Of a stretch of DNA of 64,000 bases, positions 40,552 through 64,000 are shown in pieces (positions within the stretch are counted from its first letter, which is position 1; each line of letters starts with the position of its first letter). Source of the DNA: Roseofilum acuticapitatum BLCC-M154 (GTDB taxonomy: Bacteria > Cyanobacteriota > Cyanobacteriia > Cyanobacteriales > Desertifilaceae). Under the pieces are notes generated by a model that saw nothing but the letters and a program-made list of their open reading frames with translations, was not told the origin of the DNA and ran no database searches. Where the stretch lies: assembly GCF_030068475.1 (NCBI RefSeq), contig NZ_JAQOSP010000052.1, positions 1 through 64,000 on the forward strand. The letters are read 5' to 3'. Position numbers and translations under genes: made by a program.

Positions 40552-43314
40552 ATGTCCACTAAACAACCTCTTCCTCTTCCCTTCAAAGACCGTTCTACCT
40601 TATCTTTGCGATTTCTATTGGTAGTTCCCTTCGTCCTGGAATTGGCTTTAGTGGTGGGATTAATTGGTTATTTGTCCTTTCGCAATGGTCAAAAATCGGT
40701 CAATCAACTCGCGACTCGTCTGAGTGGGGAAGTTACCCATCGCATTCAAGAACATCTGAAGCGCTTTGCCGATACGCCCCATTTATTCTTGAAGATGAAT
40801 GAAGCGGCGATCGCCTCCCAACGCTTTGATCCCGACAACTTCGATCAAGTCATACCCTACTTTTGGCAACAAGTGCAAATTCATCCCTGGGTGCGATCGC
40901 TCTATTACGGCAACACCCAAGGCGACTTTATCATGGTCAACCGCGATCCCACTCCCCGCGTTTATCGTCGCGATCTCAATAGCGCCCCAAACCGTAATAT
41001 CTATCACTTAGATGCACAAGGCAATCCCACCAATCAACTCATCCGCAGTGCCGAATACGATCCCCGTACCCGGCCCTGGTATCAAGCCGCAGTCCAAGCC
41101 AAAACAGCCACTTGGTCACCTATTTACCTCTTTTCTGCTTCTGAAGATTTGGGCATTACCCCGGTTTTACCCCTCTATGATGACCAAGGAACCCTCAAAG
41201 GAGTTTTGGGTGTAGATTATACGCTCACCCAAATTAGTCACTTTTTAGCCAGTTTAGAGATTAGCGACACCGGTGAAGCCTTTATTATGGAGCGATCGGG
41301 TAAACTGGTAGCCAGTTCTACGCCTGAATTACCCTTTATTGAGACTCCAGACGGTCGTCAACGGATTAAAGCCTCTGAAAGTCAAAATCCCTTAATTGTG
41401 CAAGCAGCCCAGCAAATTGCCGCCTTAGCCTCCCTAGAAGAACATCAAGAGCTGATGATGAAATGGGAAGGAGAGCGCTATTTTCTAGAGATGACCACCG
41501 TCAGCCATAATCTGCAACCCTCAGAAGAGTCCTTAAAAGGACTCGATTGGGTGGTGGTGGTGATTATTCCTGAAGCCGATTTTATGGCTCAAATTAATGC
41601 CAATACTCGCAGCACGATCGCCCTTTGTGCGGTTGCTTTAATCGGTGCATTAGGATTGGGTTTAGTCATCTGTCGTTCCATTTGTCGCCCCATTTTCCAA
41701 CTGAGTCAAGGCGTAAAGGCGATCGCCAAGGGAGAAACAGTGCCCAAAATCTACGGAGGACGGATTGAGGAATTAGACCAACTTGCCCAAGGTTTTAATC
41801 AGATGGTTCATCAACTCAACATCTCCTTCCAAGCTTGGGAAGAAATGAACCAAAACTTAGAGCTTCAAGTCCAAGAGCGCACCAAGGCTTTAGAACAAGC
41901 TCAGGAGCATTTTCAAACCGCGTTTCGCTTAAGTCCTCATCCCCTCTTTATTAGTGCGATCGCCGATGGCTGTTTACTCGAAGTCAATGATAGCTTTTGT
42001 GAAATCCTCGGCTATTCCCTAGAAAACCTGCTTCACCATCGAGAAACCGAACGCCAATTTTGGGTCAATCCTCAAGAGCATCAGCGCTTAGTCCAAGTCA
42101 TAGAAACCCAGGGAACCCTACACCATCAGCAAGTCGAACTGAAAACCGCATCTGGGGAAATTAAAACCCTTTTATTATCGGGGGCAAAAATCCAATGGGA
42201 TGGACATCCTTGTGTTCTCTATGCTGCCTATGATATCAGCGATCGCCATAGAGCCATCTTAGCCTTGCGGGAACAACAGCAATATTTAAGGCTCATTTTA
42301 GATAATATTCCCCAACAAGTTTTTTGGAAAGATACCGATTGCGTCTTTTTAGGCTGCAATCGCAACTGGTCAGAAGCCGCCGGATTAGAAAGCCCAGAAA
42401 CTGTAATTGGCAAAACCGACTATGACTTATTACCCGTTCATCTGGCCGACGAATTTCGCGCCAAAGACCGGGAAATTATGGCCAGTGATACCCCGCAACA
42501 CCACATGATCGCCAAAAAAGTCAAACCGGGACAAGATGGCGAACCCATTTGGCTCGATATTAGTAAAATTCCCATCCATGATGCCAACGATCGAGTCATT
42601 GGCTTATTAGGCGTAATTGAAGATATTACCTTACGCAAAAACGCCGAAGATTCTCTGCGTTTAGAGCAAGCCAAATCCGAACAATTACTCTTGAATATTT
42701 TCCCCCAGACGATCGCCGACCAACTCAAACAGAATGACTTCAGCCATCAGCAAGTAGGAGTCCTTATTGCTGAACATTACCCATCTGTAACTATCTTATT
42801 TGCCGATTTAGTCGGATTTACCCCCCTATCGAGCAATCTACGGGCCCATGAATTAGTTGAACTCCTCAATCGCATCTTTTCCCAATTTGACCATCTTTGC
42901 GAAAAATATCAATTAGAGAAAATAAAAACCATTGGCGATGCTTATATGGTCGCTGGAGGACTCCCCGTAGAGCGTCCAGATCATGCCCAGGCGATCGCCG
43001 ATATGGCTCTGGAAATGCAAAGCCTTATCCGTCAGTTTGAAACCCCCTTTCATCAACCCTTCCAAATTCGGATTGGCATTAATACCGGCCCCGTTGTTGC
43101 TGGAGTCATCGGCACAAGGAAATTCATTTACGATCTCTGGGGAGATGCCGTAAATGTGGCTTCCCGGATGGAGTCCCAAGGAGAACCCGGACAAATTCAG
43201 GTGACCCATCAAACTTATGAATTGTTAAGAAATAACTATCATTTTCACGAACGAGGTAAAATAGAAGTTAAGGGCAAAGGAGAAATGTTTACTTATTGGC
43301 TGTTAGGCCAATAA
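40552..43314 (+). CDS. Membrane-bound class III adenylate cyclase with dCache, HAMP and PAS domains
   Basis: 920 aa. TM1 about 22-44; dCache sensor about 45-345 (RPWYQAAVQAKTATWSPIYL); TM2 about 350-375; HAMP; coiled coil; PAS about 455-575; PAS about 580-705; cyclase homology domain about 735-915. Metal Asp D752 (LFADLVGF) and D796 (TIGDAYMV) are present. Adenine-selecting K790 (EKIKTIG) and D861 (YDLWG), and NVASRM transition-state residues, point to ATP as substrate. Produces cAMP in response to a periplasmic ligand. First gene of a four-gene signalling run. Confidence 0.93.
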   Translation: MSTKQPLPLPFKDRSTLSLRFLLVVPFVLELALVVGLIGYLSFRNGQKSVNQLATRLSGEVTHRIQEHLKRFADTPHLFLKMNEAAIASQRFDPDNFDQVIPYFWQQVQIHPWVRSLYYGNTQGDFIMVNRDPTPRVYRRDLNSAPNRNIYHLDAQGNPTNQLIRSAEYDPRTRPWYQAAVQAKTATWSPIYLFSASEDLGITPVLPLYDDQGTLKGVLGVDYTLTQISHFLASLEISDTGEAFIMERSGKLVASSTPELPFIETPDGRQRIKASESQNPLIVQAAQQIAALASLEEHQELMMKWEGERYFLEMTTVSHNLQPSEESLKGLDWVVVVIIPEADFMAQINANTRSTIALCAVALIGALGLGLVICRSICRPIFQLSQGVKAIAKGETVPKIYGGRIEELDQLAQGFNQMVHQLNISFQAWEEMNQNLELQVQERTKALEQAQEHFQTAFRLSPHPLFISAIADGCLLEVNDSFCEILGYSLENLLHHRETERQFWVNPQEHQRLVQVIETQGTLHHQQVELKTASGEIKTLLLSGAKIQWDGHPCVLYAAYDISDRHRAILALREQQQYLRLILDNIPQQVFWKDTDCVFLGCNRNWSEAAGLESPETVIGKTDYDLLPVHLADEFRAKDREIMASDTPQHHMIAKKVKPGQDGEPIWLDISKIPIHDANDRVIGLLGVIEDITLRKNAEDSLRLEQAKSEQLLLNIFPQTIADQLKQNDFSHQQVGVLIAEHYPSVTILFADLVGFTPLSSNLRAHELVELLNRIFSQFDHLCEKYQLEKIKTIGDAYMVAGGLPVERPDHAQAIADMALEMQSLIRQFETPFHQPFQIRIGINTGPVVAGVIGTRKFIYDLWGDAVNVASRMESQGEPGQIQVTHQTYELLRNNYHFHERGKIEVKGKGEMFTYWLLGQ

Positions 43315-43397
43315 ACTCAGATCCCCATACTTTTTTTTGAACCGTTGTTAAAATCTCTCTTTAATTTTTTCCGTTTATTAGTTTTTTATAAACCTTT

Positions 43398-46226
43398 ATG
43401 GCTGTTTTACATCCTCAAAATAGCTGGGATCTCAATGCCAAGATTCCTTTGAAATTGTTGCTAATTATCCCGTTTGTTCTTCAGATTGTCATGATAGTCG
43501 GTTTAACGGGATGGTTTTCTGTACGCTATGGCAAAAAAGCAGTCAATGAAGTAGCCAGCCACTTACGCTATGAAGTCAGTCAACGAATCGATCAAAAACT
43601 CTCTGAATATCTGACTATTCCCCATCAAGTCAATCAAGCAACTCTAGATGTCGTGGAATTAGGATATTTACAGATCGACAATTTTCCCCAACTCCAAAAG
43701 CATTTTCTCAAACAAATCCAACGGTTCGATCCCATTGATTCCGTATTTTTTGGTAGCGAACAAAATGAATTTATAGGGATTTCCCGTGGGACAGACCAGG
43801 AAAAACAACTTATGATCGCGGGAAAAGCCACGGGTGGTAGTATTCAATTTTACTTACTTGACCAAAATATTCCGGTTCAATTGCTCGGCGAAACCCCCAA
43901 TTTTCCCATCCGCGATCGCCCCTGGTATCAAGCCGCCCTGCAAACAGAAGGAGAAGTATGGGGGCCGATCTTTACCTATCATGCCTATCCTCGCATGGCT
44001 ATCCCCGCCAGTGTTGCGATTCGCGATGATGCAGGCAACTTGATTGGAGTCTTAGGTAATAACTTTTTTCTGACCCAAATCAGTGAGTTTCTCGCCACCC
44101 TCAAAATCGGAGAATCCGGGCAAACCTTCATTCTAGAGCGCTCCGGAGCATTAGTGGCCAGTTCCACCTTACCCCAACCCTTTGCGATCGAAAATGGAAT
44201 CGCCCAACGCATTCAGGGCCGCCAATGCAAAGATCCCATCATTCAAGCCACCACCAATCATTTATTAAATACTCTAGGCTCATTAGAGCAAATCCAACAA
44301 GCCCAACAACTCGACTTTTATATCCAGAAAGACCATCAATTTGTGCAAGTTATGCCCTATCAAGATGACTATGGTCTCGATTGGCTGATTGTGGTCGTCG
44401 TTCCTGAATCCGACTTTACAGCCCAAATAGAAGCCAATACGCACAACACCATAGTATTATGTGCCATTTCCCTGATGGTAGCGATCGCCATAGGGATACT
44501 CACCGCCGATTGGATTACCCGCCCCATTTTAACCCTAGCAGCAGTCAGCGAAGCCATTGCCCAAGGAAAACTTGATACCCTTGCCTCCCCTAAAGGATAC
44601 CCCATTAAAATAACCAGCATTCGAGAAATAGAGCAGCTCTCCAACTCCTTCAAGCAAATGGCTCGACAGCTTCAAGACTCCTTCAACACTCTAGAACAGC
44701 GAGTTCAAGAGCGCACCCTCGAACTCGAAGAAGCCAAACAAACAGCCGAACAAGCCAATCAAGCCAAAAGTCAATTCCTGGCCAACATGAGTCATGAACT
44801 CAGAACCCCCCTCAATGCCATTATTGGGTTTACTCAACTCATGTTGCGCCAGTGTCGTCAAAACCCTCAACAAAGCGAGCATCTCAATATCATTCATCGT
44901 GCCAGCGAATACCTACTCGGACTGATTAACGAAGTCCTAGAAATGTCCAAAATAGAAGCCGGTCATCAGCAACTGAATGCCAACGACTTTGACCTCAAAC
45001 ATCTGGTCGAAACCGTACAAGAATTATTTGCCCTCAGAGCCAGACTCAAAGCCATTGCCCTAGAAATCGACCTCGATCCCAGTCTGCCCTCTTACATCCG
45101 CACTGATGAAGGCAAACTGCGCCAAGTCCTCATCAACCTTCTGAGTAATGCAATTAAATTTACCTGTGAAGGTTCGGTTATCCTACGGGTAAAACCCGGC
45201 AATAGCCCCCATCAACTCCACTTTGAAGTCGAAGATACAGGTATCGGCATTGAGCCAGAAGAACTCTCTAGCCTATTTATCCCCTTTGTCCAAACCCAGT
45301 CCGGGCGCAGCTCCCAACAGGGAACTGGATTGGGTCTGACGGTTACCCATCAGTTTGTTGGATTGATGGGAGGGCAGATAACCGCTATCAGTCGCGGATA
45401 TCAATTTACTCCAGCGTTTACCCAAGCCAACAACCCACTCCAACCGGTTCCTATGGCTAACTCGCCCATCGGAACCCGATTTGAGTTTGAGATTACGGTC
45501 GAATTAGTAGAAAATCTTAGTATTGAGCGTAGCGATCCCTCTCAGAGGGTCATCGGCTTAGTTCCGGGTCAACCGACCTATCGAATTTTAGTGGTTGACG
45601 ATCGCTGGAGTAATCGGCAACTCTTATTACAATTACTCGGCCCCTTGGGATTTGAGGTGCAAGAGGCTGAAAATGGTCAAGAGGCCATTGATGTCTGGGA
45701 AAATTGGCAACCCCACTTAATTTGGATGGATATGCGAATGCCTGTCATGGATGGTTATGGGGCAACTGAGTATATTAAAAAACATATTCATGGCCAAGCT
45801 ACTGTCATCATTGCCCTAACGGCCAGCGTATTTGAGGAAGAAAAAGCCTTAGTTCTCTCTTCTGGATGCGATGATTTTGTGCGGAAACCCTTCCGAGAGT
45901 CAGTGATTTTAGAGAAAATGAAGCATTATCTTGGGGTGGATTATGTGTATGAGACCTTGGAAGAAGTCCCCGACGTTTTTAGAGAGTCAGCAGAAATTCA
46001 TCCTTTCCAATTGTCCATGATGCCCGATACATGGCTGGAGCAATTGCAGTATTTTGCCGCAGGAGCCGATGGCGAGCAAATTTTGCAACTCCTTGAGCAT
46101 CTGTCAGCAGAACAGATACAGTTGCGTGAAACCCTAGCCAGTTGTGTTAATCAGTTTAAGTTTGAAGAGCTGGTAGAAATTTCTCAAGAAGCATTGCGAC
46201 TCAATAATCAAGTATCGAGAACTTAG
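43398..46226 (+). CDS. Hybrid histidine kinase with dCache sensor
   Basis: 942 aa. TM1 about 20-40; dCache about 42-340, similar to the cyclase sensor ([21 protein letters not shown]); TM2 about 350-372; HAMP; coil. HisKA with H466 (SHELRTPLN), HATPase ([21 protein letters not shown]), then REC with phosphoacceptor D778 ([11 protein letters not shown]). The C-terminal ~90 residues form a helical tail seen also in the next kinase. 10 bp from the next gene. Confidence 0.93.
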
Positions 46227-46236
46227 GTAGGGGAAA

Positions 46237-49200
46237 ATGAAGCGGGGGAAAAGACAAGGACATATAGGGTTACAGGTGCTGGGGTGGTCTTCCAGTCTGC
46301 TCCTGATTTTAGGGTTGGCTGTTGCACTGCAATGCTTACCGGTTAAGTCATCTTCTGGTAAAGAGCGCCCATTGAGTCCATTGGAAACCGGTTTTGAGTG
46401 TCATCTTTGCTTAGTTCTAAGTAGTCTAGTCACAATCGTCACTGGAAGTCTGATCGCGGGCTATGGTTATCTCCGACTCCAGCGACAGAAGATCAAGGTT
46501 CAAAAAAATCTCTTAGAGTTATTAATACTACATACTCCAGGGGCGATCGCCATTTTCGATCGTCAGATGCACTATCTCCAGGTCTCCCAGCAATGGCTGG
46601 AGATGTATAACTTACAAGAAACAGACATCATCGGCAAGTCCCACTACGAAGTCTTTCCAGACATTCCCCAACACTGGAAAGACATTCATCAATATTGTTT
46701 AACCGGGCAAATCCAAGAGTGTGAAGAAGACCCCTTTTATCGGGCTGATGGCTCTCTCGATTGGGTTAGTTGGAAAATTCACCCTTGGTATACTTATTCT
46801 GGAGCAGTTGGCGGTATTATTCTCTTTACACAAGTGCTAACCCCCTACAAAAAAACCACAGAGCAACTGCGGGAAGTCGAAGCTCGATGGGAAACCCTAA
46901 TTAACAGTACCTCCGATGGCATGATGATTGTTGACCAAGAGGGAAAAGTCTTATTTGCCAATCCATCAGCCGAGAGCATTCTCCACAAACCCCTGTCTGA
47001 ATTAATCGATTATCCCTTGGGATTGCCCATGGTGGTTGGACAAACGGCAGAAATCGAAATTACCCATGGGGGAGAAGTATTAGGAGTGAGTGAAATTAGT
47101 GTCGCTCCGGTGCAATGGGATGGAGTAGAAGCCTTAGTGGTATCTTTGCGGGACATTAGTGAACGGCGACAGGCTCAGTTAAATTTATGGGAGCGGGACG
47201 AGCGATTACAAGCTATTTTTGACCAAGCTGCCGTGGGAATTGCCTTCGGTCTTCCTTCAGGACAATTGGTACAGGTGAATCAACGGTATTGTCAATTATC
47301 AGGATACACCGAAGCTGAGTTGCTTACCATGACCTTTCGTCAATTGACTCATCCAGAGGACTTGGCAATTGAGGAAGCTTATGTTCAAGACCTCTTAAGC
47401 GGTAATAGTCAGACCTATAACCTCGAAAAGCGCTATCTCCGCAAAGATGGACAAGTGCAATGGGTGTATTTAGCGGTTTCAATTATACGAGATTGGATGG
47501 GAGAACCTACTCAGTTTATTGGCATTATTTCTGATATTCAGGAGCGCAAGCAAATGGAAGTGGCGCTGCAACAGGCAAATCAGGAGAGGGAAAAGGAAAT
47601 TCAACGGCAGCTAAAGCAGCAAGCCGAGACTGAGCGGGCAGTAGATACAGTCGTGGATAAAACCAGGGCATTTCTAGATGTGGATACGATTTTTAGCACC
47701 GTGACTTATGAGGCCAGACAGTTATTGAAGTGCGATCGCACCGTTGTCTATCGGTTTAATTCTGATTGGAGCGGCCAATTTGTAGCCGAGTCATTAGGGC
47801 AAGATCAGCGCTCATTCGTGAAACTTCCTTATGCTTATCAAGAGTTTACTGAACACCTAAGCGATTGTTTTTTAAAGATACAGATAAAGCAAAACAATAT
47901 ATCAGAAATTTATGTAGCCAATGATATTTTTTCTCGTGGGTTTCCATCCTGTTATTTACGATTTTTTCAGCGCCATCAAATTCGATCTTATTTAATTGCA
48001 CCCATTTTACAAGGCGATCGATTTTGGGGCTTGTTAGCCGCTTATCAGACTGCTTATCCTCGCTCTTGGAAGCCCTGGGAAATCAAGGCAATGATCCGCT
48101 TAGGCAAACAACTAGGAATTGCCATCAAGCAAGCAGAATCTGTTCATGAGATTGAGCAAAAATCCCAACAGATTATTCAAGCCTTACATGCTAAAGCTCA
48201 GATGCAACAAGCTAAAGAAGCGGCGGATGCAGCAAATCAGGCGAAAAGTGAGTTTTTAGCTAACATGAGTCATGAACTACGCACTCCCTTAAATGCTATT
48301 TTGGGCTTTACTCAATTGCTCTCGCGATCGGCTGTAGCTAGTGAACAAAAAGAATTTTTGAGCATTATTAAAAACTCAGGCAGTCATTTGTTATCTTTGA
48401 TCAATGATATTTTGGATTTATCTAAGATAGAATCCGGTAAACTATCGATTAATAGGAAGGATTTTGATTTATATGAAATGCTTTTAAGACTCAGGAAAAT
48501 GTTTAGCATAAAAGCCTATCAGAAAGGATTAATAATGGAAGTTCATTGGGCAGAAAATGTACCGAAATGGATTGATGGAGATGAAGGAAGATTAAGTCAA
48601 GTTTTAATCAATCTCTTAAATAATGCTATTAAATTCACTTCCGAGGGTCAAGTTAAATTGAAGGTGAGTAAAAATTCAAATAACCAGCGATTATGTTTTG
48701 AAGTTGAAGACACGGGGCCAGGAATTCCCGCCAAAGAAAGATACAGAATTTTTGAGCCATTTGTACAAACCAGTTTAGGTCGTCGGTCAGGAGAAGGAAC
48801 CGGTTTAGGATTGTCCATTAGCCAGAAATTCGTGCAATTAATGGGCGGGAAAATTTATGTGAGTTGTCCCAGTTCTGGGGGCGCTCGTTTTTGGTTTGAT
48901 TTACCTTTTGAGGAGGTTGAGCCAACGGAAGTTGCGCCTTCACCCGATCCTTTACCCGTCATCGGTTTGGTTCCGGGTCAACCGACCTATCGTATTCTGA
49001 TCGCTGAAGATGTATGGGAAATGCGACAATTATTAGTGAAGTTACTCAGTTCTGTTGGCTTTGAGGTACGCGAAGCGTGCAATGGACAGGAAGCAGTTGA
49101 GGTATGCGAGTCTTGGAAACCCCATTTAATTTGGATAGATATGAAAATATCGGCGATCGATGGATGTAGTGTCATACAGATGATTCGTCAATCTTTGGGG

Positions 49201-49629
49201 AATCACGAGATCATCATTATTGGGTTAATGAGCCATCCCGTTACTGATGAAGGGGGCGATCGCTCTTTTGAGTGTGATGATTGGATTGTGAAGCCATTCC
49301 AAGAGAGCGCTATTTTTGAGACAATAGCAAAGTATCTCGGAGTTCGTTATCTTTATGGGCCCATAGACAGTGTAAGCACCCTTACCAATGTTCACCCCAG
49401 TTTACCGGAGAATCTATTGGAGGAGAGTAATCTTAAGGGAATTCCTGAAGATTGGGCGATCGAACTTTATCATTGTGCTGCGGGAGCTGATGCAGACGGG
49501 GTTTATCAACTCTTAGCTCAATTGCCAGAAGAGTATGGAGCAGTGAAGAAGGCGATCGCGAGTTTAGTCGATCGGTTTTGTTTTGATCGAATTATGAAAA
49601 TAGCTCAGTGTAATTTTAACCATGAATAG
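46237..49629 (+). CDS. PAS-GAF hybrid histidine kinase
   Basis: 1130 aa. Two N-terminal membrane helices (about 12-32, 57-80), three PAS domains (about 95-205, 215-310, 325-440), a GAF domain about 465-640 (phytochrome-like but with no Cys-Pro chromophore site evident), HisKA with H679, HATPase (NLLNNAIKF, GTGLGL), and a REC-like domain with D968 (IWIDMKISAIDG). The final tail resembles that of the preceding kinase. It overlaps the next gene by 8 bp. Confidence 0.92.
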   Translation: MKRGKRQGHIGLQVLGWSSSLLLILGLAVALQCLPVKSSSGKERPLSPLETGFECHLCLVLSSLVTIVTGSLIAGYGYLRLQRQKIKVQKNLLELLILHTPGAIAIFDRQMHYLQVSQQWLEMYNLQETDIIGKSHYEVFPDIPQHWKDIHQYCLTGQIQECEEDPFYRADGSLDWVSWKIHPWYTYSGAVGGIILFTQVLTPYKKTTEQLREVEARWETLINSTSDGMMIVDQEGKVLFANPSAESILHKPLSELIDYPLGLPMVVGQTAEIEITHGGEVLGVSEISVAPVQWDGVEALVVSLRDISERRQAQLNLWERDERLQAIFDQAAVGIAFGLPSGQLVQVNQRYCQLSGYTEAELLTMTFRQLTHPEDLAIEEAYVQDLLSGNSQTYNLEKRYLRKDGQVQWVYLAVSIIRDWMGEPTQFIGIISDIQERKQMEVALQQANQEREKEIQRQLKQQAETERAVDTVVDKTRAFLDVDTIFSTVTYEARQLLKCDRTVVYRFNSDWSGQFVAESLGQDQRSFVKLPYAYQEFTEHLSDCFLKIQIKQNNISEIYVANDIFSRGFPSCYLRFFQRHQIRSYLIAPILQGDRFWGLLAAYQTAYPRSWKPWEIKAMIRLGKQLGIAIKQAESVHEIEQKSQQIIQALHAKAQMQQAKEAADAANQAKSEFLANMSHELRTPLNAILGFTQLLSRSAVASEQKEFLSIIKNSGSHLLSLINDILDLSKIESGKLSINRKDFDLYEMLLRLRKMFSIKAYQKGLIMEVHWAENVPKWIDGDEGRLSQVLINLLNNAIKFTSEGQVKLKVSKNSNNQRLCFEVEDTGPGIPAKERYRIFEPFVQTSLGRRSGEGTGLGLSISQKFVQLMGGKIYVSCPSSGGARFWFDLPFEEVEPTEVAPSPDPLPVIGLVPGQPTYRILIAEDVWEMRQLLVKLLSSVGFEVREACNGQEAVEVCESWKPHLIWIDMKISAIDGCSVIQMIRQSLGNHEIIIIGLMSHPVTDEGGDRSFECDDWIVKPFQESAIFETIAKYLGVRYLYGPIDSVSTLTNVHPSLPENLLEESNLKGIPEDWAIELYHCAAGADADGVYQLLAQLPEEYGAVKKAIASLVDRFCFDRIMKIAQCNFNHE

Positions 49630-51481
49630 CCTTGGTCAAACTTCCTCTAAGGGGAATTTATTAATTGTCGATGATACTCTCAATAATTTACGTCTGTTAT
49701 CCAATAGCTTGATCGAAGAAGGCTATAAAGTACGAGGGGTGACTAATGGTCAAATGGCTATTACTGCGGCTAAAACTATTCCTCCAGATTTAATTTTATT
49801 AGATATAAAAATGCCGGACATGGATGGCTATCAAGTCTGTCAACATCTCAAGTCCGATCCTCTCACTAAGGATATTCCAGTTATTTTCTTAAGCGCTTTA
49901 GATGATGTCATTGATAAAGTCAAAGCCTTTGAAGTAGGGGGAATTGATTATATCACTAAACCCTTTCATCTTGAAGAAGTGATTGCCCGCATAGAAAATC
50001 AACTAGCCCTGACGAAAGCTAAGGCAGAAATCACTAAACTCAATAGTGAGCTAGAACAGCGCGTGCAAGTGCGAACAGAGCAACTGCAAGAAATGAATCA
50101 AAAATTAATTAGTGCTAATAAAAAATTAGAGTGTGAAATCTCAGAGCGACAGAAAATTCAGCAAAAGTTGCTCCATATGGCATCCCATGATGCGCTCACT
50201 GGCTTACCGAACCGAGTCTGGTTTATGGATTGTCTGATTCAAGCTTTGGAGCGGTTTAAATTAGATCAAACTTATAAGTTTGCTATTTTATTTATGGATT
50301 GCGATCGCTTTAAGATGGTTAATGACTCTTTAGGTCATTTAGTCGGCGATCATGTACTGATTTCCGTTGCCCGTCGCTTACAATCTTGTTTGCGCTCTAG
50401 TGAGGTTTTAGCTCGGTTTGGCGGTGATGAATTTGCTATTATGATGGATAACATTGAAGATGTTAAAATTGCTATTAATCTGGCACAAAAAATTCAAAAT
50501 TCTTTGACTTGGCCATTTCATTGGAATCAACAAGAAATTTTCTTAAATGCCAGCATTGGGATTGTTTTTAGTACCCCTGACTATCAAGAACCGGAGCAAC
50601 TTCTCCGGGATGCAGATATTGCTATGTATCGCGCTAAAGGTAGCCATAAAAGCTATCAAGTATTTGATGCTTTTATGCGTCAAAATACTCAAAAGAGATT
50701 TCAGATCGAAACGGATTTAAGATTGGCGATCGAGAATCAAGAATTTGTGCTTTACTATCAGCCGATTATTTCTATAAAAACTGGCTATATTTCTGGGTTT
50801 GAAGCATTGATTCGTTGGCAACATCCCCAACAGGGATTTATTTCACCTGCTGCTTTTATTCCCATTGCTGAAGAAACGGGTTTAATTGTCCCTATTGGGT
50901 TATGGGTATTACAAGAAGCTTGTACTCAGTTTCAGTATTGGCGCAAACAAGGCTGGATTAATTCAGAGGTTAAAATGAGTGTCAATTTGTCAGTCAAGCA
51001 ATTTAATCAATCGACGTTAATCGATCAAATCGATCGCATTTTATTGAGGACAACATTTGATAGCAAAAATTTGAAGCTTGAGATTACTGAAAGTGCGATT
51101 ATGGATAATCCAGAATTAGCCAATAATGCCCTTGACAAGCTTAAGCAACGCTCGATTCAGCTCAGTATTGATGATTTTGGTACGGGCTATTCTTCTTTAA
51201 GTTATTTACACCGTTTTCCAATCGATACCCTAAAAATCGATCGTTCATTTATCAGTCGAATGGGAGAGCAAGGAGAAAATGCAGAAATTGTAGAAGCGAT
51301 TATTACCTTAGCTCATCATTTAAATATTACGGTGACGGGTGAAGGTGTAGAAACGGCTTCTCAACTGGCTCAACTCTCTAAAATGGGGTGTGAAGAAGTA
51401 CAAGGCTATTTTATGTCTAAGCCCTTAGATGGGGAAGCTATGGGAGAGTTATTAGCTAAAGTTCCCCATTGGCCAGTTTGA
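49622..51481 (+). CDS. Response regulator with GGDEF and EAL domains
   Basis: 619 aa. REC 12-130 with D61 (LILLDIKMPDMDG), coiled linker, GGDEF about 180-345 with intact GGDEF (267-271), EAL about 360-610 with intact EAL at 394-396 (EALIRWQHP) plus ESAIMD and DDFGTGYSSL. It could make or break c-di-GMP; both active sites look complete. It is likely the phosphorylation target of the upstream hybrid kinase, whose gene overlaps its start. Confidence 0.94.
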   Translation: MNSLGQTSSKGNLLIVDDTLNNLRLLSNSLIEEGYKVRGVTNGQMAITAAKTIPPDLILLDIKMPDMDGYQVCQHLKSDPLTKDIPVIFLSALDDVIDKVKAFEVGGIDYITKPFHLEEVIARIENQLALTKAKAEITKLNSELEQRVQVRTEQLQEMNQKLISANKKLECEISERQKIQQKLLHMASHDALTGLPNRVWFMDCLIQALERFKLDQTYKFAILFMDCDRFKMVNDSLGHLVGDHVLISVARRLQSCLRSSEVLARFGGDEFAIMMDNIEDVKIAINLAQKIQNSLTWPFHWNQQEIFLNASIGIVFSTPDYQEPEQLLRDADIAMYRAKGSHKSYQVFDAFMRQNTQKRFQIETDLRLAIENQEFVLYYQPIISIKTGYISGFEALIRWQHPQQGFISPAAFIPIAEETGLIVPIGLWVLQEACTQFQYWRKQGWINSEVKMSVNLSVKQFNQSTLIDQIDRILLRTTFDSKNLKLEITESAIMDNPELANNALDKLKQRSIQLSIDDFGTGYSSLSYLHRFPIDTLKIDRSFISRMGEQGENAEIVEAIITLAHHLNITVTGEGVETASQLAQLSKMGCEEVQGYFMSKPLDGEAMGELLAKVPHWPV

Positions 51482-58520: not shown

Positions 58521-58577
58521 GGGAACGTGGACAGCCTAATGTAGGACTATACCCCCAAGCTTCGGGGAGTTTGTCAA
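58521..58577 (+). mobile_element. Short relic of a tnpB right end
   Basis: GGGAACGTGGACAGCC followed by ACTATACCCCC-AAGCTTC-GGGG hairpin and AGTTTGTCAAT, the same final layout as the relics at 20130 and 54064. Only about 57 bp remains; it abuts the stop codon of the leftward coiled-coil gene. Its identity is less certain than the other two. Confidence 0.5.
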
Positions 58578-59338
58578 TCTTCGGCGCTCTGTTTTGGGTT
58601 TTCGATTACGGGGTTTAAAATGTCGCACAACTGTTGATAATAGCGATTGGCATAGTACCAGCGAGGATTGGTTTTTAAGTTAACCGATTGGAGTTTGGTT
58701 CCCAGTTCATGGACGACTTGGGTGAGGCTCTTAAGTTGCTCTTGATACTCTTCTCGCTCGGCAATCAGGTGTTCAATGGTGGCTTGGAGTTCTTGATTAA
58801 TTTTGAGGCTCTGGCTCTGTTGCTGCCAGAGTTGTTCGCGATCGAGTTTTAGTTTTTGGTTATCTTGCCAGAGTTGCTCTAACTGTTGCTGTAGGTCTTC
58901 GATTTCTAGAAGGAGTTGATAGTATAAGGCTTGATTGAATTTGGGTTTGCGAGTTTGCACAATGGGATCTGCTGGTGCTTCGGATTCAGGGGGTAAGGTG
59001 GGGAGGATCATTTGAGGGTCTGGACATAACCATTGGACGGCTTCGATGAGTTTGGCGGTGTTGAGGTGCTTGGTTTTTCCTAATTCATGTTGTTTGAAAA
59101 TGCCGCCGATACATTTGGAGGCATACCAAGAGCGATCGGAGCGTAAATAACAAGTGATCCGATAAATGACTGAATAGTTTAAGGGTTGCCAATGGAGGTG
59201 AAATTTGAATTTTTTGTGCTGGAGTATCCAAGCTGCAAATTCTGGGCTACCCACCTCTAAACCCGAATCAGATTGAGCTTTGCTTTCGCTTCTAGAACGA
59301 GGGTTAAGGTGACAGGTAATGAGGGGATAGGCGTTCAT
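58574..59338 (-). CDS. Coiled-coil protein downstream of the dCache receptors
   Basis: 254 aa, no signal peptide or membrane helix. N-terminal 100 residues (PLITCHLNPRSRSES..., YSVIYRITCYLRSDRSWYASKCIGGIF) are uncharacterised; residues 130-220 form a coiled coil (LYYQLLLEIEDLQQQLEQLWQDNQKLKLDREQLW). Starts 14 bp after the receptor stop codon, so it probably belongs to the same operon and could be a cytoplasmic partner. Function not recognised. Confidence 0.6.
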   Translation of the reverse strand: MNAYPLITCHLNPRSRSESKAQSDSGLEVGSPEFAAWILQHKKFKFHLHWQPLNYSVIYRITCYLRSDRSWYASKCIGGIFKQHELGKTKHLNTAKLIEAVQWLCPDPQMILPTLPPESEAPADPIVQTRKPKFNQALYYQLLLEIEDLQQQLEQLWQDNQKLKLDREQLWQQQSQSLKINQELQATIEHLIAEREEYQEQLKSLTQVVHELGTKLQSVNLKTNPRWYYANRYYQQLCDILNPVIENPKQSAED

Positions 59339-59352
59339 GGTGATGGCTGGAG

Positions 59353-61230
59353 CTAGAGATTAAAGAGGGTTTTCATCCGAGATTTAATTTGCTGTAAGAG
59401 GTCGGTTTCTCCATCTTCGAGTAGACCATATTCTGCGAGCAGTTGTTTGCGTTCTTGGAGTTCAATTTGGTGACGATGGAGATCTTGGGCAATTTGTTCG
59501 GCCATTTGGGGATATTGGTGGAGGACTTTGCCAAAGTTGGGGCGATTGATGGAGAAGAGGATGGTTTCTTCGATCGCGATCGCCGTTGCAGTTCGATTTC
59601 CCCCAAGCATGAGAGCCAGTTCTCCAAAGGATTTTCCCGCCGTGAGGGTGACTAAGGGCTTATTGATTTTCTCAACAAAGATGCGAACTGAACCGGTAAG
59701 GATGATATAAAACTCATCTCCGGGTTCGTTTTCCCGACAGATATAGTCTCCGACATGAAAGCGTTTAATCTTGCCCTCCATGACTAACTGCCCTAACTGT
59801 TCAGCCGTGAGGTGTTGATAGTAGGGGACTTGGGCGAGAAGTTGGGGGAGATGGGGGTGGTAGTCATAAACAGCGCGAATACAGGAGGCTTTTTTCTGCC
59901 ATTTTTTCAAAGCCGTGAGTTCATAGGGGTTTTCTTTGGATTGACCAATCTGAAAATTGAGGAGGTTGAGTTGTTCTTGGAGGCTTTGTTGGCGATCGCC
60001 CGTTTCCAGCGCCATATCGACAAACACTCTAGCTAATTCCCCCACCTCATCCTCACGTTGAGTTAAATTCTCTAGGGTTTGCGGAGCAAACGATTGGGAT
60101 TTAATGTCATCCGCCGCTTGACTAAATTGAAAAATGGGTTGTAGAATCCAGCGACTGACCCCTAAACCCACTCCTACAGCAGCACACAAAATCACGATTT
60201 CTAAAAGCAGAGTAATCCGAGCTTGAAGTTGTACTTGCTTCATGAAATCTGATTCAGGAATAATGACTATAATCAGCCAATCTAAGCCGAGCTGATCTCG
60301 AAATGTTTTAACTTGAAAAAAGTTTTTTTTCCTTTGCCAGCGAAACGATGAATTCAGGGTACTGTCCACTTCAGAAAAGCTGCCAAATTCTGCTAATAAG
60401 TTTTCGGCGATCGCCCCAATTAACGGATTTTCAGTCGCGGCCATATTTAAGCGATTAGCATGACTCTCTAATTCTGCAACGACTTGAGGATTAGAACTGG
60501 CAATTAATAAGCCTTCGCGATCGATAATTAAAGCTTGTCCCGTCTTACCAATCGTTAAAGTTTGCAGAAACTCATTAATCTGCCGAAACAGCAGATCGAC
60601 CCCCAAAACCCCCCTAACTTCTCCTTGAGCATCCTTCACCACTTGTGCCACAGTAATCCCTAATTCTTGGGTATCAAAATCTCGATAAACATTACTCCAA
60701 ATCGGTTGATCGGAGTTCAGAGCTGCTTGATACCAAGGGCGAAGACGCGGATCGTGATTTGAGGTTTGCTGAACGATTTCAGTGGCTTTGCCATCCGGAG
60801 TGGTTGCATAAGTCATTAAATTAGAATTAGTAGATTTTCCAGCTCTTGTAATTCCTACTTCTCCTGATTCAAGAAGCGTTCCACCTCTAAATTCACCTTC
60901 AGGATTAGCAAAGTATAGATGGGTAACACCCTCAAACATTTGAATTTGCTGCCAAAAGTAAGATTCTAAGCCGCCTAAATTATCAGGATTCAGAGTGCCT
61001 AAGTCAATACTTTCAAGATTGAGTTGATTGATGCTATGGGGAACAGACAAATAATCCCGAAGTTTATCGTCCACATGATCCGTTATAGTATGGGCTAACT
61101 CAATAGAAACAAGATTAATATTTTTCCGGTTTTTTTGAAATCGAACGACCGCAATTAATCCTACCATCAAAACAGATGGTGCAACAATCATAATCGGCAA
61201 ACGATATTTAATAGATAGTCCTTTAATCAT
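59353..61230 (-). CDS. dCache-HAMP receptor with C-terminal cyclic-nucleotide-binding domain
   Basis: 625 aa. TM1 about 10-30; dCache about 30-330 ([21 protein letters not shown]); TM2 about 335-355; HAMP about 358-410; then ALKKWQKKASCIR; CNB domain about 470-600. The phosphate-binding cassette is complete: FGELALMLGGNRTATAI, so cAMP or cGMP binding is plausible. No catalytic output domain follows. Overlaps the upstream gene by 8 bp. A membrane receptor that combines a periplasmic ligand with a cytoplasmic cyclic nucleotide would be unusual. Confidence 0.9.
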   Translation of the reverse strand: MIKGLSIKYRLPIMIVAPSVLMVGLIAVVRFQKNRKNINLVSIELAHTITDHVDDKLRDYLSVPHSINQLNLESIDLGTLNPDNLGGLESYFWQQIQMFEGVTHLYFANPEGEFRGGTLLESGEVGITRAGKSTNSNLMTYATTPDGKATEIVQQTSNHDPRLRPWYQAALNSDQPIWSNVYRDFDTQELGITVAQVVKDAQGEVRGVLGVDLLFRQINEFLQTLTIGKTGQALIIDREGLLIASSNPQVVAELESHANRLNMAATENPLIGAIAENLLAEFGSFSEVDSTLNSSFRWQRKKNFFQVKTFRDQLGLDWLIIVIIPESDFMKQVQLQARITLLLEIVILCAAVGVGLGVSRWILQPIFQFSQAADDIKSQSFAPQTLENLTQREDEVGELARVFVDMALETGDRQQSLQEQLNLLNFQIGQSKENPYELTALKKWQKKASCIRAVYDYHPHLPQLLAQVPYYQHLTAEQLGQLVMEGKIKRFHVGDYICRENEPGDEFYIILTGSVRIFVEKINKPLVTLTAGKSFGELALMLGGNRTATAIAIEETILFSINRPNFGKVLHQYPQMAEQIAQDLHRHQIELQERKQLLAEYGLLEDGETDLLQQIKSRMKTLFNL

Positions 61231-62620
61231 TTTTCTTGATCGTGTTACTTTGGCGAATTTGCCGAGATTTTTCTTTTAAGTAGTCCCAGTAGCTTAAAGT
61301 TATTTCAGGAGATTTATGTTCTTCCTCAGAATCCGTGATTTTGGTTTTATAGGTGCTTAAGTTTTCTATTCTTTTTTCCAAGTTGCTTTGCTGCTCTTGA
61401 ATCAACAAGACCATTTCTTCAAAGACACGACTAAAGTGACCAATTTCATCATTCCGTTTGACTAAACCAGCAATTTTGTTAGGATTAAATTTTTGAGATT
61501 TGATTTGTCTTGCAGTTTTATTTAACTGCAAGAGTGGAGATACAACCAATTGATGCATACTCCATCCAGCGAAAATGCTACCAATAATCGCAGTCAAAAA
61601 CAAAAAAAATAGAATCGAATTTTTATCGGCAGAATTAAAGACATCCGACTCTGACAAAATGATAATCGCAATCCAGTGTAGATCCCAATCATTTTCGATC
61701 GGTTCAACCCAAGTAAAATATTTGTGATTATCATGCCAAAAAACAAACTGTTTTGCTTCCTGAATGAGACTCGTATCACTAAATTGGTTAATCAATCTGT
61801 TTCCAACTTCTTGAATGATAGGATCTGGACTTTCCGCAATCATCCAATGAGTTTCTGATTCTGGATCGAGTATGGTTAAAGGATCGGGATCGGAACTGGC
61901 AATCAATTGACCATTGTCTTGAATAATTAATACTTTTGCTGCTTTACTAATCGATACATCTCGAAGAAATTCATGGAGCGTATTGAGAAAGTAGTCAACA
62001 CCAAAAACTCCAACTAAATTTCCTTGTCGATCTCGTACTGCTTGAGCTGCGGTAATTGCTAATTGGCGAGTCGTAAAATCTGGATAGACTGGACTCCAAA
62101 CCAGATTGTTGGCTTTTTCTGCTTTTTGATACCAAGGTTGATGGGTAGCATGAAATACTGGATTTTTGCTGATGATTTGACCCCGTTTACCTTCCCGATT
62201 AAGCGTATAACTCGTTAATTCATGATTTGTTTCTTTGCCCGCATAAGATTGTGTAATTTGTCCGCTATCATTAAGTTTAACGCCAATAAAATCTCCATTT
62301 ACATCCCCAAAATAAATATTATTTATGGATGTAAATAGTCGAACTTTATTATACAATATAAGTGTTAAATTTTGTGGATTATTATATATGGATGGATTAG
62401 ATCGATAATGATTTAAGCTCAGTTCATAGATAATCTCAGGTTGCCGCAGATTCATGTGGATATTACTTTCAATTTGGTTGACCGATTCCCGAATCCAATA
62501 TTGGGAGAGTTCATCTACTGTTTTACGCTCATTATAATTAGCTAAAATCCAAGTAAATGTTAATGTTGCCATTAACGGAGTTACCGTTAATATAGGAATT
62601 ATTTTTTTGAGAGAAACCAT
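61223..62620 (-). CDS. dCache-HAMP receptor without output domain
   Basis: 465 aa. TM1 about 8-28; dCache about 30-330 (HQPWYQKAEKANNLVWSPVY, GVFGVDYF, LIIQDNGQLIASSD); TM2 about 335-355; HAMP and coil to about 420; then WDYLKEKSRQIR and a short polar end. No kinase, cyclase or MCP domain. Lies 20 bp after the preceding receptor gene in the same direction. Confidence 0.88.
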   Translation of the reverse strand: MVSLKKIIPILTVTPLMATLTFTWILANYNERKTVDELSQYWIRESVNQIESNIHMNLRQPEIIYELSLNHYRSNPSIYNNPQNLTLILYNKVRLFTSINNIYFGDVNGDFIGVKLNDSGQITQSYAGKETNHELTSYTLNREGKRGQIISKNPVFHATHQPWYQKAEKANNLVWSPVYPDFTTRQLAITAAQAVRDRQGNLVGVFGVDYFLNTLHEFLRDVSISKAAKVLIIQDNGQLIASSDPDPLTILDPESETHWMIAESPDPIIQEVGNRLINQFSDTSLIQEAKQFVFWHDNHKYFTWVEPIENDWDLHWIAIIILSESDVFNSADKNSILFFLFLTAIIGSIFAGWSMHQLVVSPLLQLNKTARQIKSQKFNPNKIAGLVKRNDEIGHFSRVFEEMVLLIQEQQSNLEKRIENLSTYKTKITDSEEEHKSPEITLSYWDYLKEKSRQIRQSNTIKKND

Positions 62621-62640
62621 AAATAAACCTGTGTTACTTA

Positions 62641-63879
62641 TTATTTATTTCTAATACATTGAGCTTTACGTTTTAGGGCTTTGAAGTAAGCCATTTCTAA
62701 TTCCTGAGCTTGATTTAAATTAGCACCTTGCATTCTAAGTTTCCGTACTTGCTCGGCTAAATTTTGCTGGCGAGAATCAACTACTTTAATCATCTCATCA
62801 AATCCCCGTGCTAATTGTCCAATTTCGTCTCCTCGACGACTGACTTTCTCTAAATCTTGAGATTTTACAGTTAAGCTTCCCTCGGTCACTTGATTAACAT
62901 TTTTGGCGATTATTAAAATAGGTTGAGTCACTTTGCGGGATAAAATATAGACAACCAACAGCAAAATAGCGGAAACCAAACACCCCCACAGGAGTAAATT
63001 TTTGGCAATGGTTCCCGACACTTGAAAAGCTTCTTCTCGTGTGATTTCTACTAAAATTGCTAAGTTTTTATCTTCTAGCCATCGGTAACTTCCAATCACT
63101 TCTACTTGTTGGTGATTAGTATAAAAATCAAGACCATCTTGACCCGACATGACAGCATCAATTCCTGCGCTTCGTATCCATTGATCGGCTAAGTCTGTGT
63201 TTTGGGTGTCTACAAAGCGATTTTCTTGTCCCTGTTTGCGGATTAAATAGGCTTCATCGGTTTCTCCTAGTCCAGTCGCTTCTTGCATGATTTCATGGAT
63301 TTTTTCTAGGGATAAATCAACGGATAAAACCCCTATTCTTTCCCCTCGATCGTTGAGTAAGGGGGTTGCGAATGTCATGGCTGTTTCTCTGGTTACTGGA
63401 GAAGTGTATAAGGTAGGGCGAACAGTCGTTAAGTTTTCTTTTGTAAAGTAAGTAACGGTATTTCCCAACGGTTGATAGTTTCCTTCTTCTTCTCCTTGAG
63501 TGGAGATAGAGACAATGCCGCTATTGGTGGAGATGGATAAGGATTGAATCGTATTTTCGGTTTCTAAAATGGTGTTAAAGTAATTTTTCAGCACTTGATA
63601 GGATTGCCGATCGCTGGTATTGAGATAGTTTTGATAGGAGTTCACAATGGTGGGAGTTTGTGAAATTAATAAGATGGTTTTATGCTGTTGGGAAAACCAG
63701 TTATCAATCTGATTTTCTTTGATGGAGATCACGACTTCCATTTGACTGGTAATGGATTTTTTGAGCAGCTCAACGGATTGATAATAAATGACGATCGCCA
63801 ATCCCACTACGGTAACTAGGGACAAGAGAGAAAAATATCCTACATGCTGGATCAGTAAACTATTATGCCAACGTTTCAT
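62641..63879 (-). CDS. dCache-HAMP receptor without output domain
   Basis: 412 aa. TM1 about 12-34; dCache about 38-300 with a sequence less close to the other receptors (LYTSPVTRETAMTFATPLLNDRGERIGVLSVDLSLE); TM2 about 300-322; HAMP (LSRKVTQPILIIAKNVNQVTEG); coil; end FKALKRKAQCIRNK. No output domain. First complete gene of the leftward operon; 42 bp after the partial gene at the edge. Confidence 0.87.
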   Translation of the reverse strand: MKRWHNSLLIQHVGYFSLLSLVTVVGLAIVIYYQSVELLKKSITSQMEVVISIKENQIDNWFSQQHKTILLISQTPTIVNSYQNYLNTSDRQSYQVLKNYFNTILETENTIQSLSISTNSGIVSISTQGEEEGNYQPLGNTVTYFTKENLTTVRPTLYTSPVTRETAMTFATPLLNDRGERIGVLSVDLSLEKIHEIMQEATGLGETDEAYLIRKQGQENRFVDTQNTDLADQWIRSAGIDAVMSGQDGLDFYTNHQQVEVIGSYRWLEDKNLAILVEITREEAFQVSGTIAKNLLLWGCLVSAILLLVVYILSRKVTQPILIIAKNVNQVTEGSLTVKSQDLEKVSRRGDEIGQLARGFDEMIKVVDSRQQNLAEQVRKLRMQGANLNQAQELEMAYFKALKRKAQCIRNK

Positions 63880-63921: not shown

Positions 63922-64000
63922 CTACTGTTGCAGTTGGGTTAAGTGTCTTCTGCGCCAGGCAAAATGCAAGAGATTAATCCCCAGTTCTTGGGCGTTGCGG
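63922..64000 (-). CDS. C-terminal end of a gene cut by the window edge
   Basis: 25 codons to a TAG: RNAQELGINLLHFAWRRRHL..., ending QLQQ. The gene lies on the same strand and 42 bp upstream of the receptor operon. Too short to identify. Confidence 0.45.
   Translation of the reverse strand, partial: RNAQELGINLLHFAWRRRHLTQLQQ

What the first reader, a model, noticed from the sequence alone, without database searches (positions are those of the whole stretch)
59353..63879. Receptors without output share a short C-terminal motif
Three receptors end their coil with the pattern L/W-(K/Q)-x-K-(A/S)-x-(C/Q)-I-R (ALKRKAQCIR; YLKEKSRQIR; KWQKKASCIR). In the CNB-bearing one it lies just before the CNB domain. 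With no enzyme domain and no MCP tip, this motif may dock a partner, and the coiled-coil protein encoded at 58574 is a candidate. This could be an undescribed membrane signalling complex.
Basis: partly seen in the sequence, partly recalled or inferred. Interest (0 to 1): 0.6.

Follow-up and report, generated by a model that had tools for sequence, protein, structure and literature searches.

The report
Injection-system receptors with shared docking tail
Three membrane sensors that end in the same short tail turn out to be the last genes of an operon for a phage-tail-like injection machine, and the tail belongs to a widespread family of sensor tails that elsewhere goes hand in hand with one uncharacterised MinD-like ATPase, so these sensors probably signal by docking a machine rather than through an enzyme.

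Summary
The motif is real. Two unreported associations explain the motif better.

(1) The three receptors follow two contractile injection system (CIS) baseplate genes, CIS12-like and CIS13-like, just past the window edge. In 13 of 40 sampled cyanobacterial CIS clusters a Cache- or Tll0287-HAMP receptor, with or without a CNB domain, follows CIS13. Receptor C matches the one in L262 end to end. All 14 such receptors carry the same coil-end motif, C-terminal if they lack an output and just before the CNB otherwise.

(2) The motif is a divergent form of a 36-residue C-terminal tail on many output-less cyanobacterial sensors. That tail co-occurs with one MinD/ParA-like ATPase: 117 both, 5 and 5 alone, 164 neither of 291 genomes. 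The two genes are often adjacent, fused three times, and paired in Chloroflexi.

The window genome lacks that ATPase, so its receptors most likely act on the CIS. Docking is inferred, not shown.

The parts
62641..63879 (-). Receptor A: dCache-HAMP receptor without output domain (412 aa)
   Evidence: conserved in 6/6 same-genus genomes
62650..62688 (-). Coil-end motif of receptor A, YFKALKRKAQCIR, 2 residues from the C-terminus
   Evidence: 15.0 bits to the tail model built without this genus, 0 of 2000 shuffles
61223..62620 (-). Receptor B: dCache-HAMP receptor without output domain (465 aa)
   Evidence: (HAMP sub-threshold)
61253..61294 (-). Coil-end motif of receptor B, SYWDYLKEKSRQIR
   Evidence: 6.3 bits to the tail model (orthologues up to 8.8), p <= 0.001; 80% identity against 44% in the linker
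59353..61230 (-). Receptor C: dCache-HAMP-CNB receptor (625 aa), end-to-end homologue of the CIS-cluster receptor in L262
   Evidence: blastp E 8.6e-111 to L262 receptor, alignment
59875..59913 (-). Motif of receptor C, ALKKWQKKASCIR, between coil and CNB
   Evidence: positional homology only; sequence score not significant
63922..64000 (-). 3' end of the CIS13-like/DUF4159 gene; the gene runs to contig position 65319, with the CIS12-like Tail_P2_I gene upstream of it at 65427-66527 (outside the window)
58574..59338 (-).

Best explanation
A, B and C are the membrane receptors of a contractile injection system. The Cache domain senses a ligand outside the cytoplasm, the signal passes through the membrane and HAMP to the coil, and the short basic motif at the coil's end docks onto a partner instead of driving an attached enzyme. 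In this operon the most likely partner is the CIS baseplate, with CIS13-like/DUF4159 or CIS12-like as first candidates, so that the receptors recruit the particle to the membrane and/or gate its firing; cyclic-nucleotide binding by the CNB of C may add a second input. Shown here: operon position, homology of C to other CIS-cluster receptors along its whole length, and conservation of the motif in CIS receptors. Inferred: direct docking, the identity of the docked protein, and control of recruitment or firing.
For: CIS13-like and CIS12-like genes lie directly upstream on the same strand, 42 bp from A. The pair is conserved next to the receptors in five of the six genomes, with CIS13 alone visible at the contig edge of the sixth, and with the TIGR02243-type baseplate gene in G003. 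Sheath, tubes and a spike-like gene are elsewhere in the window genome. In 13 of 40 CIS clusters sampled, a Cache/Tll0287-HAMP receptor follows CIS13, against about 0.3 expected from 33 HAMP genes per genome. All 14 of these receptors carry the motif, and a model of it places them within the top 15 of 2075 proteins, with one canonical-tail protein among them. They come in the window's two forms: output-less with the motif at the C-terminus, and CNB-bearing with the motif before the CNB. Nine of the 13 genomes lack the MinD-like ATPase, so that protein is not required. Precedents: Anabaena tCIS anchors to the thylakoid membrane through Cis12 and Cis13 (PMC8894136); Streptomyces CIS needs the membrane protein CisA to contract (PMC12237407).
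Against: Gene order does not prove contact. Most CIS clusters read (27 of 40) have no such receptor beside CIS13. The 13 come mainly from clusters with window-like CIS13 (12 of 20 against 1 of 20), and phylogeny was not controlled. Window A and C score weakly with the CIS-receptor motif model (p 0.06 and 0.35); A fits the ATPase-linked tail better. No structural model of the interface could be made.
Confidence: 0.5

Rival explanations
1. The tail is the docking or ATPase-activating peptide for a MinD/ParA-like ATPase that collects signals from many sensors or positions them in the cell. The window receptors are divergent members of that system.
For: Tail and ATPase presence agree in 281 of 291 genomes (117/5/5/164; genera 62/2/2/65). 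44 of 150 listed tails lie within 10 kb of an ATPase gene against 0.94 expected. Three natural fusions place the tail just N-terminal of the ATPase. 57 of 80 ATPase-selected loci hold a tail gene. The pair also occurs in two Chloroflexi genomes. Known activators of ParA/MinD ATPases are short basic peptides grafted onto varied domains (PMC7993993). Receptor A tail matches the tail model.
Against: The window genome and three congeners lack the ATPase, yet A/B/C and their motifs are kept. CIS-linked receptors do not track the ATPase (9 of 13 genomes lack it; CIS13 with ATPase 37 seen, 34.4 expected). Known activator peptides are N-terminal, this one is C-terminal.
Confidence: 0.12
2. The motif is a structural cap of the post-HAMP coil (dimer stabilisation), not a docking site.
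For: It always sits at the end of a coil and is short; in C and other CNB receptors it is an interdomain linker.
Against: In the wider family it ends proteins without HAMP (CHASE2, GAF, FHA-GAF) and tracks a separate ATPase gene with near-perfect fidelity. In B it is far more conserved than the coil before it.
Confidence: 0.22
3. The three receptors signal by hetero-oligomerisation: A and B pair with C through the coil-end motif and C reads out through its CNB domain, with no CIS contact.
For: A, B and C are always adjacent in the genus and share the motif.
Against: Single CIS-linked receptors without partner receptors carry the same motif (L269, L271, L273, L275, L276, L300).
Confidence: 0.1
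4. The coiled-coil protein encoded at 58574 is the docking partner.
For: Same operon in five of six same-genus genomes.
Against: No homologue outside the genus, missing beside the receptors in G004 where the tails remain, while the motif is present in many genomes without it.
Confidence: 0.06

Closest known systems
Thylakoid-anchored CIS of Anabaena (tCIS; PMC8894136)
   Same: Cyanobacterial CIS whose Cis12 and Cis13 link it to a membrane; the window operon carries CIS12- and CIS13-like genes.
   Different: In tCIS Cis13 itself has a transmembrane helix. Here CIS13-like carries a DUF4159 region with no clear transmembrane helix (maximum hydropathy 1.28), and separate sensory receptors follow in the operon.
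CisA of Streptomyces coelicolor CIS (PMC12237407)
   Same: A membrane protein encoded with a cytoplasmic CIS, proposed to recruit it to the membrane and needed for contraction.
   Different: CisA is a bitopic protein; no Cache, HAMP or CNB domain is mentioned in the passages read. Homology was not tested.
ATPase-activating peptides of ParA/MinD systems (PomX, MinE, ParB, TlpT, McdB; PMC7993993)
   Same: Short basic peptide grafted onto unrelated domains, partnered with a MinD/ParA-type ATPase; compares with the canonical tail.
   Different: Those peptides are N-terminal; the tail is C-terminal, about 36 residues with its own conserved sequence, and activation is untested.
Signalling helix (S-helix; PMC1592074)
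   Same: Helical element after sensory domains.
   Different: The S-helix sits between domains and bears an ERT signature; the tail ends proteins and its consensus lacks ERT.

Membership tests
Receptors of cyanobacterial CIS gene clusters | Gene directly downstream of CIS13 on the same strand | tested here: met
   window genus; 13 of 40 clusters
Receptors of cyanobacterial CIS gene clusters | Cache or Tll0287 sensor plus HAMP, output-less or with CNB | tested here: met
Receptors of cyanobacterial CIS gene clusters | Coil-end motif at the aligned position | tested here: inconclusive
   Aligned in all; model score p 0.06 (A), 0.004 (B), 0.35 (C)
Receptors of cyanobacterial CIS gene clusters | Physical contact with the CIS or effect on its firing | not testable with these tools
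   needs experiment
Tail family linked to the MinD-like ATPase | Match to the 36-position tail model built without this genus | tested here: inconclusive
   A 15.0 bits, B 6.3 bits, C -0.1 bits; none reached E 0.01 in the whole-genome search
Tail family linked to the MinD-like ATPase | ATPase in the same genome | tested here: not met
   absent from G000-G003, present in G004 and G005
MinD / ParA (for the tail-linked ATPase) | Curated family score and deviant Walker A signature lysine | tested here: not met
   minD_arch 75-86 of 201.75 bits; RGGTGKS with Arg in place of the signature Lys in all aligned sequences; nearest solved relatives 1hyq, 4v03
S-helix | ERT signature and position between two domains | tested here: not met
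   tail consensus has no ERT and is C-terminal
Chemoreceptor (MCP) | MCP signalling tip | tested here: not met
   no MCPsignal match in A/B/C

The most novel reading that the evidence does not exclude
Bacteria use a common C-terminal docking tail that turns almost any sensor (Cache, Tll0287, CHASE2, GAF, PAS, FHA, receiver, CNB) into an input of one hub: usually a MinD/ParA-like ATPase with an arginine in place of the signature lysine, and in a derived branch the baseplate of an intracellular contractile injection system. This would be a sensor-to-machine coupling without kinase, cyclase or chemotaxis output, present in more than a third of the cyanobacteria sampled and in Chloroflexi.
Probability: 0.4. 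Interest if true: 0.9.

Novelty: new variant of a known kind. Interest (0 to 1): 0.74.

Why it matters
How cytoplasmic contractile injection systems in multicellular bacteria learn when and where to fire is open. Dedicated ligand-sensing membrane receptors in the same operon make that question directly testable in cyanobacteria. The wider tail/ATPase pair would explain what large numbers of output-less cyanobacterial sensor proteins talk to.

Tried and rejected
Coiled-coil 58574 as general partner: rejected, genus-restricted. The window receptors as plain members of the ATPase system: not accepted, since their genome lacks the ATPase. CIS and ATPase as one system: no co-occurrence beyond chance. 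The idea that receptor-bearing clusters lack a transmembrane helix in CIS13, so that the receptor supplies the anchor: hydropathy peaks overlap between the two groups, no clear difference. S-helix: no ERT signature. PADLOC: only weak coiled-coil or ATPase hits. Literature searches in the held library found no report of HAMP receptors in CIS clusters or of the tail/ATPase pair; the library is incomplete. Structure prediction was not used because it returns no interface.

Full report
Observation. The three genes are on the minus strand, nearly contiguous, and encode dCache-HAMP receptors; the third adds a CNB domain (HAMP of B is below the Pfam cut-off). Across six genomes of the same genus the receptors and motifs are kept: A is YF(K/R)ALKRKAQx(I/L)R, B is SYWDxLKxK(S/A)xx(I/V)R, C is LK(K/R)(W/L)QKKA(S/T)xIR. 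In B the motif averages 80% pairwise identity while the linker before it has 44%. The exact pattern was found in 8 of 694 ORFs, all A/B/C orthologues.

A wider tail family. Receptor A's relatives in other genera included output-less receptors ending in ...EIVETDFFQDLENKAQSLRKR (G020) and ...EITESDYFQELQKKAKHLRKR (G046). A profile of this tail found matches in 111 of 291 cyanobacterial genomes, and a refined one (A7) in 122. The consensus is LxIEIDQxKRxxQVAEITETDYFQxLQxKAxxLRxR, mostly at the extreme C-terminus (49 of 59 tails within 40 residues of the end). It is attached to very different sensors: dCache-HAMP, Tll0287-HAMP, CHASE2, GAF, PAS, FHA-GAF, receiver, HisKA-receiver without a catalytic domain, CNB, and a Ser/Thr kinase.

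The tail has a partner gene. A MinD/ParA-like ATPase (H-S-F/Y-R-G-G-T-G-K-S-N) recurs beside tail genes. Over the same 291 genomes both are present in 117, tail only in 5, ATPase only in 5, neither in 164; by genus 62/2/2/65 (Fisher p values 5e-68 and 2e-32 ignore shared ancestry). 44 of 150 listed tails lie within 10 kb of an ATPase gene against 0.94 expected, in 11 families. Three genomes encode fusions with the tail just N-terminal of the ATPase (L104, L105, L106). A search that started from the ATPase found a tail gene in 57 of 80 named loci. Both Chloroflexi genomes reached have HAMP receptors (Cache-type in L219) with a canonical tail immediately upstream of the ATPase, 10 and about 100 bp away. 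The nearest solved relatives are MinD (1hyq) and FlhG (4v03), but the curated MinD models are far from met and the signature lysine is arginine in every aligned sequence. Published activators of ParA/MinD ATPases are short basic peptides grafted onto varied domains (PMC7993993), which makes an ATPase-docking role for this tail plausible. Direct binding is not shown.

Do the window receptors belong to it? With a profile holding no sequence of this genus, A scores 15.0 bits (0 of 2000 shuffles), its G004 orthologue 16.8, B 6.3 to 8.8 bits across orthologues (p <= 0.001), and C -0.1 (p 0.11). A and B are therefore divergent relatives. But the window genome and G001-G003 lack the ATPase, while G004 and G005 have it with canonical tails beside it. 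The A/B/C motifs are equally conserved in both groups, so they do not depend on the ATPase.

The operon context. The contig continues past the window to 70188. Directly upstream of A, 42 bp away on the same strand, is a CIS13-like gene with a DUF4159 region, preceded by a CIS12-like Tail_P2_I/TIGR02242 gene. This arrangement is kept in five of the six genomes (in G004 the contig starts at CIS13), and G003 also shows the TIGR02243-type baseplate gene next to it (the family call is from its homologue). Sheath and three tube genes are on contig C116, a fourth tube and a spike-like gene on C126. The only CIS13-like match in the genome is the one here.

CIS receptors elsewhere. Of 291 cyanobacteria, 82 have a homologue of this CIS13. 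I read 40 clusters. In 13 a Cache-HAMP or Tll0287-HAMP receptor follows CIS13 directly; otherwise, or next, comes a WD40-type gene. With about 33 HAMP genes per genome fewer than one such neighbour is expected (binomial 8e-19, again ignoring descent). Receptor C is homologous end to end, CNB included, to the receptor in L262. All 14 receptors align at a motif xxx(L/I)xx(R/K)(S/A/V)xx(A/I/V/L/S)R. It is C-terminal in the eight output-less ones and 9-10 residues before the CNB leader in the CNB-bearing ones where this was measured (8 in window C). A model of this motif ranks the CIS receptors at the top of 2075 proteins, with canonical tail proteins interleaved or next (L088 17.5, L203 12.5 bits), which ties the two families together. 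Nine of the 13 genomes lack the ATPase, and CIS13 and ATPase presence are independent.

Interpretation. Best supported: the window receptors are the sensory membrane part of a CIS, and the coil-end motif is where they hand the signal to, or hold, a cytoplasmic machine. The first candidate for that machine here is the CIS baseplate. Precedent exists for membrane attachment of CIS through Cis12/Cis13 in Anabaena (PMC8894136) and through CisA, needed for contraction, in Streptomyces (PMC12237407). What is shown: operon, homology, motif conservation, co-occurrence. What is inferred: contact, partner identity, control of recruitment or firing. A may have been recruited to the operon from an ATPase-type receptor, since it resembles the canonical tail best.

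Limits. Motif C is supported by position, not by score. The receptor-bearing clusters are concentrated among CIS13 proteins most like the window's (12 of 20 against 1 of 20), and descent was not controlled. Genomes are drafts. The literature library is partial; within it nothing I found describes either association.

Noticed in passing
L104:3325-5868, L105:4215-6398, L106:4579-6828: Natural fusions of HisKA/receiver sensor, tail and MinD-like ATPase in one polypeptide in three cyanobacterial genomes.
   Followed up: partly
L219:296-2453, L234:526-2470: In two Chloroflexi genomes a HAMP receptor with the canonical tail stands 10 to about 100 bp upstream of the MinD-like ATPase.
   Followed up: partly
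L209:1154-1507, L234:2498-2839, L110:7270-7620 and others: A small (about 100-117 aa) winged-helix-like protein recurs next to the tail/ATPase genes in cyanobacteria and Chloroflexi; a possible third component.
   Followed up: partly
L108:8158-9189, L116:9207-10253: A glutaminase (PF04960) gene is a frequent neighbour of the MinD-like ATPase and tail genes, including in two species of the window's genus.
   Followed up: no
L096:8263-10050: A CHASE2-like protein carries the tail and two further partial repeats of its end, as if to offer several docking sites.
   Followed up: no
L262:1273-3558, L265:9709-14448: Cyanobacterial CIS clusters carry a WD40-type protein (about 730 aa) and a second large protein (about 850-900 aa) after CIS13 or the receptor; their role is unknown.
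   Followed up: no
window 40552-51481 (+): A second signalling cluster: dCache-HAMP-PAS adenylate/guanylate cyclase, two hybrid histidine kinases and a receiver-GGDEF-EAL protein; the cyclase could supply the ligand of the CNB in receptor C.
   Followed up: no
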